A DNA stretch of 35,245 nucleotides from Methanofastidiosum sp. (GTDB lineage: Archaea; Methanobacteriota_B; Thermococci; Methanofastidiosales; Methanofastidiosaceae), in NCBI GenBank assembly GCA_013178285.1, contig JABLXD010000020.1, positions 1 to 35,245 on the forward strand. The letters are read 5' to 3'. A program made the translations under genes and the position numbers. Below, in pieces: positions 10,585 to 17,131 of this stretch; the stretch's first letter is position 1; every line of letters begins with the position of its first letter. Under the pieces are notes generated by a model, which worked only from the letters and a program-made list of their open reading frames with translations, made no database searches and had not been told where the DNA came from.

Positions 10585-11418
10585 ATGATACTTTCTATAG
10601 CAAGTGGTAAAGGGGGCACAGGTAAAACTACCGTTTCCGTTAATTTGGCATTAAGCCTAGGCCGAGTTCAATTGATAGATTGTGATGTCGAAGAACCGAA
10701 TGACAATATTTTCATCAAAGCCAATATAGATAGTATTCAAGATGTTAACGTAGAAATACCTCAAATTGATTCTGAAAAGTGTTTAAATTGCGGAGCATGT
10801 GCAGATTTTTGTAGCTTTAATGCTATAGTTGACCTTTCTTCAGGCATAAAGATCTTTTCAGGACTATGTCATTCTTGTGGAGGGTGTAAATTAGTATGCC
10901 AAAACGATGCTATAAGTTGGAAAGATAAAAAAATTGGCAGTATAAGAAAAGGAAAAAATGAGGATATTTTATTTTGTGAGGGCATTTTAGATATCGGAGA
11001 GAGTCGACCAACACCAATAATAAAATCCCTAAAGTATCAAATAAGGACAGGCATTGATACAATACTTGATTGCCCTCCAGGAACTTCTTGCTCATTTCTT
11101 GAAACAGTAAATGGGTCTGATTTCTGTATACTAGTTACAGAACCAACTCCTTTTGGCTTCAATGATCTAAAGATCGCCGTAGAAGCATTGAAAGAAATGG
11201 GCGTTCCGTTTGGAGTTGTAATTAATCGTGATGGGATAGGCGACGATGAAATTGAAATCTTCTGTAAAAAAGAAATGATTCCAATATTGCTCAAAATACC
11301 TTATAATAAAGAAATTGCCAAGTTGTATTCTAAAGGGGAGTCATTTATAGATTATTTTCCTGAAATATCTGGGCAGCTTGTTTTTGTATTTAATAATATT
11401 AAAGGTATGGTAAAATGA
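10585..11418 (+). CDS. MinD/Mrp-family ATPase with inserted 2x[4Fe-4S] ferredoxin, copy 1
   Basis: A 277-residue deviant-Walker P-loop ATPase: SGKGGTGKTT (7-16), IDCDVEEPN (switch I), and DCPPGT (switch II). Between them is an inserted bacterial-ferredoxin domain with two clusters (C66, C69, C72, C76 and C95, C98, C101, C105). This architecture is known for archaeal and clostridial paralogues of Mrp/NBP35 that usually occur in pairs. A role in ATP-driven Fe-S or cofactor transfer is inferred. GTGAGAAG precedes the ATG, and the stop overlaps the next start in ATGA. Confidence 0.88.
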   Translation: MILSIASGKGGTGKTTVSVNLALSLGRVQLIDCDVEEPNDNIFIKANIDSIQDVNVEIPQIDSEKCLNCGACADFCSFNAIVDLSSGIKIFSGLCHSCGGCKLVCQNDAISWKDKKIGSIRKGKNEDILFCEGILDIGESRPTPIIKSLKYQIRTGIDTILDCPPGTSCSFLETVNGSDFCILVTEPTPFGFNDLKIAVEALKEMGVPFGVVINRDGIGDDEIEIFCKKEMIPILLKIPYNKEIAKLYSKGESFIDYFPEISGQLVFVFNNIKGMVK

Positions 11419-14378: not shown

Positions 14379-15482
14379 TTAATCTTTTCTTATTTCTTTT
14401 CTCTGGGCCATTCTGTAAGCGCAGACTACAAGGGTCTTACCAGATAGTTCTTTATCTAATTCATCATCGCCCGTATCAACTAATAGAAAAGGGGTATTCT
14501 CTAATTTTTGAGGAGTTGCAATAATTATAATATTATCTTTGCCAACTTTTCTTAAAACTTGACTTGAAATCTGTTGATTTCCTCTACCAAAAACAAATCC
14601 CTGTGCCCCTATCGGGCTCACTATTATTTTGACACTCTTTTCATCTTTGATATATTCTAAGATTGCCTTTTCATTGACATCACTTGCAATTAGTTTTTCA
14701 TCTTTTATTAAGTCTACACCGAGCATTGTCTTCTTCAGACCCATAACTTCTGCAATCTTTGCTGTTGTTGAACCAGCACCGACTATATACAAAGAACCGT
14801 CGGACATAAATTCACTTGCAAATACTGCTATCCCATCCTTTGCCATTTCTTCGTCGTGGCCTTCAAATAAAGCCTTGGCATCTTGCACCAAATTTGGTAT
14901 ATACGGTGTTTTTAGATATCCATACAACTTCATTTTGAATTTATCTGCCCTATAGCTTTCCTCATCAATATCTAATACGTCAGAATCTTTGTACTTAGAA
15001 TTTCCTTCTAAAAAAGCTTTAAGGATATCTGACGCGGCTTTTGGATTAATTGCAAAAACTGATGAAAACATCTTTACTCCTGCAGGCATTCCGATAACTG
15101 GAATATCTTTACCGATGGCCTCACAAATATCTCTTGCTGTACCATCTCCCCCGCAGAATATTATGAGCTCAACTTTTCTCTTTTTGAACTCTTCTATCGT
15201 TTTTAGAGTATCATCTCTACTAGTTAATCCCTTAACTGTATAAACAACTTCATATTCAAGCTCTTTGTTTTTTATTAAGTCTTCACCCATCTCGCCAGAA
15301 GGAACAAGAAATTTTACATCTTTTACTTTGCCAAGTGATTCAAAAAATACTTCTGCCCTCTTTTTTGACACCTTTTCTGCACCAAGTTCCAGGGCTTTTT
15401 CATATAGTCCGTCAGTTCCTTTTAGCCCAACTGAACCCCCCATACCAGAAATTGGATTGACCAAAAAACCAAGAGTTTTCAT
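14379..15482 (-). CDS. ATP-NAD kinase-like protein (COG3199/AcoX family)
   Basis: A 367-residue protein of the diacylglycerol/NAD-kinase superfamily. GFLVNPISGMGGSVGLKGTDG opens the nucleotide-binding fold, and FCGGDGTARDI is the conserved GGDGT motif. IPVIGMPAGVKMFSSVFA follows, and a GRGNQQIS motif lies in the C-terminal part. COG3199 proteins are predicted NAD kinases or related phosphotransferases; the exact activity is unproved. GTGAT precedes the ATG by three bases. It is separated from trpB by a terminator-like palindrome and probably shares a transcript region with trpS. Confidence 0.8.
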   Translation of the reverse strand: MKTLGFLVNPISGMGGSVGLKGTDGLYEKALELGAEKVSKKRAEVFFESLGKVKDVKFLVPSGEMGEDLIKNKELEYEVVYTVKGLTSRDDTLKTIEEFKKRKVELIIFCGGDGTARDICEAIGKDIPVIGMPAGVKMFSSVFAINPKAASDILKAFLEGNSKYKDSDVLDIDEESYRADKFKMKLYGYLKTPYIPNLVQDAKALFEGHDEEMAKDGIAVFASEFMSDGSLYIVGAGSTTAKIAEVMGLKKTMLGVDLIKDEKLIASDVNEKAILEYIKDEKSVKIIVSPIGAQGFVFGRGNQQISSQVLRKVGKDNIIIIATPQKLENTPFLLVDTGDDELDKELSGKTLVVCAYRMAQRKEIRKD

Positions 15483-15489
15483 TTTATCA

Positions 15490-15522
15490 CAAAAATAAAA
15501 AAATAGGAGGATTAATCCTCCT
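15490..15522 (-). terminator. Palindromic terminator at the end of trpB
   Basis: AGGAGGATTAATCCTCCT (15505-15522) is a perfect 18-bp palindrome able to form a 7-bp stem with a TTAA loop. On the minus strand it is followed by TATTTTTTTATTTTT. The trpB stop codon TAA lies inside the loop, so ribosomes reaching the stop would cover the hairpin. Confidence 0.7.
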
Positions 15523-16879
15523 TGATGTTTGGAAGTTTTTTAAGAGACTGTTTTACAAGTTCTACTGGGTACTCGTAGTCTGTTAGTTTGCCATGAAGGT
15601 AGAGTTCGTAAGATTTAAGGTCAAAGTGTCCATGTCCGCTTGCATTGAATAGGATTACCTTTTCTTCGCCAGTTTGTTTACACTTCTTTGCTTCTTCAAT
15701 AACAGATTTAACTGCATGGGCAGTTTCTGGGGCCGGAACATGACCTTCTGTTTGTGCAAAGAGCATTGCCGCTTCAAATACTTCAGTTTGGTGGTATGCT
15801 TGAGCTTCGATAATGTTTTGATCTTTTAGTGCACTTACTATAGGTGATGCACCGTGGTACCTTAATCCTCCGGCATGGATGCCTGGGGGGATGAAGTCAT
15901 GACCCAAAGTAAACATTTTTGCAATTGGACCTAACTTTGTGGAGTCACCATAATCGAATGCATAAAGACCTTTTGTAAGAGTTGGACATGAGTGTGGTTC
16001 AACGCCAACAATTCTTAGATCTTTTTTATCTTCCTTTAATTTATCGTGTATGAACGGGAATGAAACCCCAGCAAAGTTGGAGCCTCCGCCAACACAACCG
16101 ATTACTATGTCTGGATATCTTTCTTCCATCTTTAACTGTTCTCTAGCTTCAAGACCGATTACTGTCTGGTGCATACAAACGTGATTTAAAACACTTCCAA
16201 GAGAGTATTTTGTATCCTCATGTGTTGCTGCATCTTCTACTGCTTCAGATATAGCAATTCCAAGACTTCCAGGATGTTCTGGATTATCTTTTAGGTAAGT
16301 TCTTCCTGCGTTTGTCTTATTGCTTGGACTTGGAAATACTTCTGCACCCCACAAGTGGATTAGATTTCTTCTGTAAGGTTTTTGTTCGTAACTTACTCTT
16401 ACCATGTAAACTCTGCACGTTATGTCAAATAAACTCGTTGCGTAGCTTAATGCAGATCCCCACTGGCCTGCACCAGTTTCAGTTGTTATCGTTTGCGTGC
16501 CTTCTTTCATATTATAGTATGCTTGTGCAACTGCTGTGTTTGGTTTGTGACTGCCTGCAGGTGAAACCCCTTCCCATTTGAAATAAATTTTTGCAGGGGT
16601 TTTTAGGGCCTTCTCTAATCTTAGAGCTCTGTAAAGTGGAGAAGGTCTCCATACTGCATAAATATCACGTATGTCTTGCGGAATATCAATCCATCTTTCT
16701 TGAGATACTTCCTGTTTTAGAATTTCCATTGGAAAGAGTACTGAAAGCTCTTCCAATGTAGCCTGTTTTAAGGTTCTGGGACTATATACCGGCGGCAGAG
16801 CCTTTGGCAGATCTGCCTGTATATTGTACCATTTTTTTGGCATTTGGTTTTCGTCCAAAAATATTTTGGTTCTTTCCAT
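15512..16879 (-). CDS. trpB: Tryptophan synthase beta chain, TrpB2 type
   Basis: A 455-residue PLP enzyme joining indole and serine to make tryptophan. The PLP lysine is K112 in AGSHKPN, the phosphate-binding loop is [11 protein letters not shown], and [11 protein letters not shown] surrounds the substrate site. The extended N-terminus (about 80 residues before the conserved core) and its length mark the TrpB2 group rather than the about 400-residue TrpB1 that pairs with TrpA. No trpA lies nearby, which is usual for TrpB2 and suggests indole salvage or a free-standing enzyme. GGGAGG precedes the ATG, and a TATA-like sequence lies at 16910-16924. Confidence 0.92.
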
Positions 16880-16909
16880 TTTTTATCCTCCCTTAATACT
16901 TTTTTAAAA

Positions 16910-16924
16910 ATCTATAAAATATTT
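16910..16924 (-). promoter_or_regulatory. TATA box of trpB
   Basis: Read on the minus strand this is AATATTTTATAG-like sequence about 38 bases upstream of the trpB ATG. It would start a short leader and leaves the structured RNA at 16983-17096 upstream of this promoter. Confidence 0.45.
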
Positions 16925-16982
16925 TAACTAAATAAACTAAGACCTCTAAAAATCTCTAGATGTCTAATTTATACTAAAATCC

Positions 16983-17096
16983 CTATGAGTAAGCGAAAAA
17001 CCTAAAGTTAGGCCGCTTAGTATCGCCACCACCAAAATTTAAGAAAAGAGTCTTTTGTGACTACTTTGGCTGTTTTGGATGGCTTTAAACTCATAG
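16983..17096 (-). ncRNA. Predicted three-way-junction structured RNA
   Basis: The only sizeable gene-free stretch here (16880-17142) holds nested pairings. P1: 16983-16990 with 17089-17096, 8 perfect bp. Arm A: 16990-16995 with 17014-17019, capped by CCTA/TAGG. Arm B: 17025-17028 with 17080-17083, then 17032-17037 with 17073-17078, then 17045-17052 with 17059-17067 (one bulge), closing a 6-base loop. The minus strand is preferred: a TATA box (17122-17131) predicts transcription from about 17100, right at P1, and one extra G-U pair forms only on that strand. A long trpB leader is the alternative. I recognise no known family. Confidence 0.55.
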
Positions 17097-17121
17097 TACC
17101 AAAAAATTTAATCATAGATCT

Positions 17122-17131
17122 ATTTATAAAT
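17122..17131 (-). promoter_or_regulatory. TATA box for the structured RNA
   Basis: ATTTATAAAT is a symmetrical TATA element in an A/T-rich context. On the minus strand its spacing predicts initiation about 26 bases downstream, near 17100, which is four bases outside the P1 helix. On the plus strand it would start inside the tail of an antisense gene, so the minus reading is favoured. Confidence 0.5.

What the first reader, a model, noticed from the sequence alone, without database searches (positions are those of the whole stretch)
16983..17131. Undescribed three-way-junction RNA upstream of trpB with its own TATA box
An otherwise empty 263-base gap contains an 8-bp closing helix (16983-16990/17089-17096) that brackets two independently foldable arms. 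A TATA box is placed so that minus-strand transcription would begin at about 17100, at the edge of that helix. A second TATA box (16910-16924) sits between the structure and trpB, so it may be a free RNA rather than a leader. If it is a leader, it sits in front of a tryptophan gene and near trpS, so a regulatory role would be attractive. I recognise no known archaeal RNA or riboswitch.
Basis: partly seen in the sequence, partly recalled or inferred. Interest (0 to 1): 0.72.

Follow-up and report, generated by a model that had tools for sequence, protein, structure and literature searches.

The report
Archaeal tryptophan leader-peptide attenuator
The "mystery RNA" in front of a tryptophan-making gene of a methane-producing archaeon contains a tiny gene for a peptide with three tryptophans in a row, which looks like the bacterial trick of sensing amino-acid shortage through stalled ribosomes, a kind of control not known in archaea according to a 2021 paper.

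Summary
The 263-base gap is real, promoter-like and conserved upstream of trpB in 9 of 10 Methanofastidiosum genomes; in the tenth, the contig ends inside trpB. It is not a non-coding RNA. On the minus strand, about 35 nt after a conserved TATA box, lies a 24-25 codon ORF (17017-17094), MSLKPSKTAKVVTKDSFLKFWWWRY*. It has three tandem Trp codons just before its stop and precedes trpB2 - NAD-kinase-like - trpS. In all nine genomes the start, the WWWRY codons, the stop and the frame are kept, through a 3-nt deletion and a paired deletion that also preserves a helix. Most of these genomes lack trpA and trpC, so TrpB2 is probably an indole-salvage enzyme.

The same genome has conserved leaders with Tyr/Phe codons (YYYFSFRY*) before chorismate mutase/DAHP synthase and Tyr codons (YCYYYYGY*) before an aryl-CoA ligase operon. 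One relative has a second Trp leader (TWWWN*) before an aryl-CoA ligase and TrpP transporter.

Best reading: a leader-peptide attenuator sensing Trp supply, a bacterial-type mechanism with no known archaeal example as of 2021 (PMC8448881). Sensing codons are well supported comparatively; the read-out (termination or Shine-Dalgarno masking) is unresolved, and there are no expression data.

The parts
17121..17131 (-). TATA box of the leader promoter (TTTATAAAT on the minus strand)
   Evidence: Conserved in the nine genomes, 35 nt before the leader ATG in most; start site not mapped
17017..17094 (-). Leader-peptide ORF MSLKPSKTAKVVTKDSFLKFWWWRY* (25 codons plus stop)
   Evidence: Start, frame, WWWRY and stop kept in nine genomes; only open frame of the three
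17026..17034 (-). Three tandem Trp codons TGGTGGTGG, the proposed sensing codons
   Evidence: Invariant in nine genomes; position; among 1171 intergenic small ORFs only this one has three W in four residues
16983..17096 (-). P1 closing helix (17089-17096 with 16983-16990): pairs the leader start codon region with the segment after the stop
   Evidence: Fold; 7 pairs invariant, one mismatch in one genome, no covariation
16991..17018 (-). P3 hairpin directly after the stop codon (17014-17018 with 16991-16995, inner stem 17008-17012 with 17001-17005)
   Evidence: Conserved; G004 has lost one base on each side of the helix while the stop becomes TAG
16928..16964 (-). Hairpin 16941-16964 followed by a U-rich tract; candidate terminator
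   Evidence: One pair changed on both sides in the consensus fold (G-C to A-U); U-tract quality varies between genomes and one genome folds it poorly
16885..16892 (-). Shine-Dalgarno GGGAGGAT of trpB
   Evidence: Conserved; consensus fold pairs it weakly with UUUUCUU in the leader ORF
15512..16879 (-). trpB2, TrpB-like tryptophan synthase
   Evidence: TIGR01415 and NF009057 above cut-off
14379..15482 (-). NAD-kinase-like gene, second in the operon
   Evidence: PF01513/PF20143
13224..14342 (-). trpS, tryptophanyl-tRNA synthetase, third in the operon
   Evidence: TIGR00233 and PRK12285 above cut-off; same order in the genus

Best explanation
The stretch is a ribosome-dependent attenuator in an archaeon. 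Transcription starts just before the ATG of a 25-codon leader peptide whose last residues are WWWRY. If charged Trp-tRNA is scarce, the ribosome stalls on the three Trp codons; if Trp is plentiful it runs to the stop and leaves. The two states leave different parts of the leader RNA free to pair, which decides whether trpB2 and trpS, with the gene between them, are expressed: ON when Trp is short, OFF when it is plentiful. Shown here: the conserved ORF, sensing codons, operon, promoter-like box and RNA elements. Inferred: that the peptide is translated, that stalling is the signal, and the direction of control. The read-out is open: termination at the hairpin plus U-tract (16928-16964), or masking of the trpB Shine-Dalgarno by the UCUUUUCUU stretch just upstream of the Trp codons, which a stalled ribosome would cover.
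For: Nine genomes keep ATG, frame, WWWRY and stop, with a whole-codon deletion and a paired deletion that keeps both stop and helix; the other two frames contain stops. Operon trpB2-NADK-trpS conserved, leader stays with it where the upstream gene differs. trpA in 1 of 10 and trpC in 2 of 10 genus genomes, so lone TrpB2 fits indole salvage. It is the only one of 1171 intergenic small ORFs with three W in four residues. Independent leaders with matching codons: YYYFSFRY* before chorismate mutase/DAHP synthase, YCYYYYGY* before an aryl-CoA ligase operon with whole-codon Tyr indels, TWWWN* before an aryl-CoA ligase and TrpP. The Tyr leader has mutually exclusive pairings.
Against: No RNA, ribosome or peptide data. 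Substitutions in the ORF are not enriched at third positions (6/6/5). Constrained folding of the trp leader shows no antiterminator or Shine-Dalgarno switch. Not found outside the genus.
Confidence: 0.83

Rival explanations
1. A structured non-coding element (riboswitch-like aptamer or free small RNA); the WWW frame is a by-product of a conserved GGUGGUGG motif.
For: Stable fold; synonymous positions around the Trp codons are fixed and changes are not third-position biased; P3 shows a paired deletion.
Against: Start, stop and frame are conserved through indels; no covariation in P1 or P2; unrelated leaders in the same genus share tandem codons matching their operons but not this RNA sequence.
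Confidence: 0.09
2. A leader peptide that arrests the ribosome when free Trp or indole is bound (TnaC-like), rather than through uncharged tRNA.
For: The C-terminal WWWRY and RY* endings are conserved at residue level; the Tyr/Phe leader also ends RY* in most genomes.
Against: The other leaders end in different residues (GY*, N*) and share only pathway-matching codons, which points to codon sensing.
Confidence: 0.05
3. A T-box-like element that binds uncharged tRNA-Trp directly through UGG sequences.
For: UGG repeats in a structured leader of trpB/trpS.
Against: No T-box match at E<=10; such an element would not need a conserved start codon, frame and stop.
Confidence: 0.02

Closest known systems
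Ribosome-mediated amino-acid attenuators of bacteria (E. coli trpL, pheA, his type)
   Same: Short ORF between promoter and first gene, tandem codons for the amino acid made by the operon near its end, hairpins after the stop, U-rich tract before the structural gene.
   Different: In an archaeon with TATA promoter and near-leaderless start; no classical antiterminator found in the trp leader; Trp codons lie at the very end of the ORF; helix joins the start codon region to the segment after the stop. Bacterial features are from general knowledge.
Translational attenuators (ermC type)
   Same: In the Tyr leader, alternative pairings can mask or free the downstream Shine-Dalgarno.
   Different: Signal would be amino-acid supply, not a drug; for the trp leader the Shine-Dalgarno switch is not shown.
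T-box riboswitches
   Same: Respond to tRNA charging and control trp genes and synthetases in bacteria.
   Different: No T-box match; the element here has a conserved ORF.
Archaeal regulators TrpY and TK0271 (PMC6737238, abstract)
   Same: Control of aromatic amino-acid genes in archaea.
   Different: Those are proteins acting on transcription initiation; this is a leader acting after initiation. Their binding sites were not searched for here.

Membership tests
Leader-peptide (ribosome-mediated) attenuator | Short ORF between promoter and first structural gene | tested here: met
   TATA box, ORF 17017-17094, then trpB; nine genomes
Leader-peptide (ribosome-mediated) attenuator | Tandem codons for the amino acid concerned | tested here: met
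   WWW invariant, upstream of trpB2 and trpS
Leader-peptide (ribosome-mediated) attenuator | Mutually exclusive RNA structures linked to ribosome position | tested here: inconclusive
   None found for the trp leader by constrained folding; present in the Tyr leader of the same genus
Leader-peptide (ribosome-mediated) attenuator | Terminator or masked ribosome-binding site before the structural gene | tested here: inconclusive
   Hairpin plus variable U-tract; weak pairing with the Shine-Dalgarno
Leader-peptide (ribosome-mediated) attenuator | Leader is translated and expression responds to the amino acid | not testable with these tools
   Needs ribosome profiling and expression data
T-box riboswitch (RF00230) | Match to the family's covariance model | tested here: not met
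   No match at gathering or E<=10
Known Rfam RNA or riboswitch family | Match to a covariance model | tested here: not met
   P1 and P2 have no compensatory change; one both-side change in an inner stem pair and a paired deletion in P3

The most novel reading that the evidence does not exclude
Methanofastidiosum runs a small regulon of leader-peptide attenuators (Trp twice, Phe/Tyr, Tyr) controlling salvage and synthesis of aromatic amino acids: the first ribosome-mediated attenuation known in archaea. It may have arisen independently of the bacterial systems and uses a near-leaderless start and a helix joining the leader start to the region after its stop.
Probability: 0.65. Interest if true: 0.92.

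Novelty: new variant of a known kind. Interest (0 to 1): 0.85.

Why it matters
A 2021 study states that no example of transcription attenuation or antitermination is known in archaea (PMC8448881). A set of conserved leaders with matching sensing codons would show that archaea too read amino-acid supply through ribosomes, would imply close interplay of ribosomes with nascent or leader mRNA in this group, and gives a concrete, testable promoter-leader-operon unit.

Tried and rejected
Rfam at gathering and E<=10: nothing. Covariance model of the leader against 115 genomes of the phylum: only the genus. Upstream regions of about 70 other trpB2 loci: no Trp leader outside the genus; one W-rich ORF (L076) is out of frame inside a longer ORF. 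Trp operons of G001 and (partly fetched) G003: no W-rich leader. Aryl-CoA ligases of other families of the order: no convincing aromatic leader. Constrained folding of the trp leader with stalled ribosomes: no switch found. Other run-bearing small ORFs inspected lay inside longer ORFs or lacked a fitting gene. TrpP occurs in the phylum sample only in G009, so it could not extend the set. Literature searches returned no archaeal leader-peptide attenuator among the titles and abstracts listed; most subscription journals are not held. One tool paper names archaea in a general sentence on uORF attenuation (PMC10219788); the works it cites were not read.

Full report
OBSERVATION. The inverted repeat, the fold and the upstream TATA box are as described. 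The 114-nt minus strand folds far better than shuffles (z -3.9, 1 of 200 as good), and nothing in Rfam matches. The window lies in a genome whose nearest named relatives are Candidatus Methanofastidiosum (record titles). A DNA search of 61 genomes found the whole gap in nine genus genomes, the window's own included, at 72-100% identity, and nowhere else at comparable score. The tenth genome, G008, has a contig that ends within trpB.

WHAT IT IS. Aligning the nine sequences on the minus strand shows that the conserved core is an ORF. In G000 it reads ATG AGT TTA AAG CCA TCC AAA ACA GCC AAA GTA GTC ACA AAA GAC TCT TTT CTT AAA TTT TGG TGG TGG CGA TAC TAA: MSLKPSKTAKVVTKDSFLKFWWWRY* (17094-17017). 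Relatives read MSLEPSNTTKVVKKDSFLRFWWWRY*, MSIEPSNANKMVKKDSFLRFWWWRY* and MSLEPTSRNFVENDAVLRVWWWRY*. G004 and G005 lack exactly one codon. In G004 one base is lost at the stop, turning TAA into TAG, together with a base on the other strand of helix P3, so frame, stop and helix all survive. The other two frames contain stops in all nine genomes. The ATG lies 35 nt after the TTATA box in most genomes, so by usual archaeal spacing the leader mRNA would be nearly leaderless; the start site is inferred, not mapped. In-frame ATGs further upstream exist in several genomes, but only this ATG is common to all.

CAVEAT ON CODING EVIDENCE. Changes in the ORF are spread evenly over codon positions (6/6/5). 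There is no third-position excess, and synonymous positions near the Trp codons are also fixed. This fits attenuator leaders, where the sensing codons and the RNA are selected, but it is not independent proof of translation.

CONTEXT. trpB2 (TIGR01415), an NAD-kinase-like gene and trpS (TIGR00233/PRK12285) follow with gaps of about 30-40 nt, in the same order in the genus genomes whose fetched contigs reach that far. In two relatives (L032, L033) the gene before the leader is not the phosphoglycerate mutase found elsewhere, yet the leader remains with trpB2. trpA was found in 1 of 10 and trpC in 2 of 10 genus genomes, while both families rang in all 14 control genomes. TrpB2 is therefore probably an indole-salvage synthase, and the operon would couple Trp production to Trp-tRNA charging.

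MORE LEADERS. TGGTGGTGG occurs 24 times in the genome. Apart from this site, the only one found in an ATG-started short ORF is an 8-codon ORF whose context was not examined. I fetched 1.92 Mb of the 2.12 Mb genome and scanned small ORFs. Among 1171 intergenic small ORFs upstream of genes, the trp leader is the only one with three W in four residues, and the top-scoring Tyr ORF is MRDSMRENLYEPTYVLFENSLSTVYCYYYYGY*. The latter sits 53 nt before an aryl-CoA ligase (nearest to PaaK models, below their cut-offs), followed by an SSF-family symporter and an ACT-domain protein. It is conserved in nine genus genomes with a variable body, an invariant YCYYY(Y)GY ending and whole-codon Tyr indels. A third leader, M(M)GKIRSSESVSRKLYYYFSFRY*, precedes chorismate mutase, two DAHP synthases and 3-dehydroquinate synthase, and is conserved in the seven genomes read in detail. 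G009 alone has a fourth, MAMMLVSPKTQVKFSREGTIFVNTWWWN*, before an aryl-CoA ligase and a TrpP-family transporter. It has no comparative support but is unrelated in sequence.

HOW IT MAY WORK. In the Tyr leader, the segment after the stop (UUGAAUUCCCUCGU) is complementary to the leader start region (GGGAUUCAAUG, AUGAGGGAG) and, alternatively, to the ligase Shine-Dalgarno (CCUCGU/ACGGGG) and start region. Masking the leader start with an initiating ribosome lowers modelled Shine-Dalgarno accessibility to 0.14-0.22 in all eight genomes, from 0.45-0.68 in six of them; in the other two it is already low. Its hairpin before U7 shows compensatory changes by eye. In the Phe/Tyr leader, UCUUUCC can pair with the leader start GGAAAGA; modelled accessibility changed little there. 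For the trp leader the read-out is not resolved. The hairpin at 16941-16964 is followed by a U-rich tract of variable quality and its modelled formation does not depend on ribosome position. The consensus fold pairs UUUUCUU, just upstream of the Trp codons, with the trpB Shine-Dalgarno, which a ribosome stalled on WWW would mask; this pairing is weak and has no covariation. P1 might limit re-initiation on the leader. These are proposals.

LITERATURE. Blombach et al. [quoted passage not shown] A 2021 review of archaeal transcription-translation coupling contains neither 'attenuation' nor 'leader peptide' (PMC8116511). My searches returned no counter-example among the listed titles and abstracts, but the library lacks most subscription journals, so priority is not certain.

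VERDICT. The best-supported explanation is a tryptophan leader-peptide attenuator, one of a small set in this archaeal genus. Sensing codons and conservation are shown; translation, direction and read-out are inferred.

Noticed in passing
G000:C2:67777-68041 (L305), outside the window: Conserved Tyr-rich leader ORF (…YCYYYYGY*) before an aryl-CoA ligase - SSF symporter - ACT-domain operon, with alternative pairings of the segment after its stop.
   Followed up: yes
G000:C2:19855-20180 (L185), outside the window: Conserved Tyr/Phe leader ORF (…YYYFSFRY*) before chorismate mutase, two DAHP synthases and 3-dehydroquinate synthase.
   Followed up: yes
G009:C70:2253-2497 (L344, L366): Second Trp leader (…VNTWWWN*) before an aryl-CoA ligase and a TrpP-family transporter, found in one genome only.
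   Followed up: partly
G001:C100:9000-18828 (L165): One relative carries a full trp operon (trpA, trpB1, trpC and others) without any W-rich leader.
   Followed up: partly
window 14379-15482: An NAD-kinase-like gene sits between trpB2 and trpS in all genus genomes examined; why it belongs to a tryptophan operon is unexplained.
   Followed up: no
G000:C33, about 11366-11374 (L157): Another ATG-started short ORF with three Trp codons (MLWCWWWC); surroundings not examined, possibly out of frame inside a gene.
   Followed up: no
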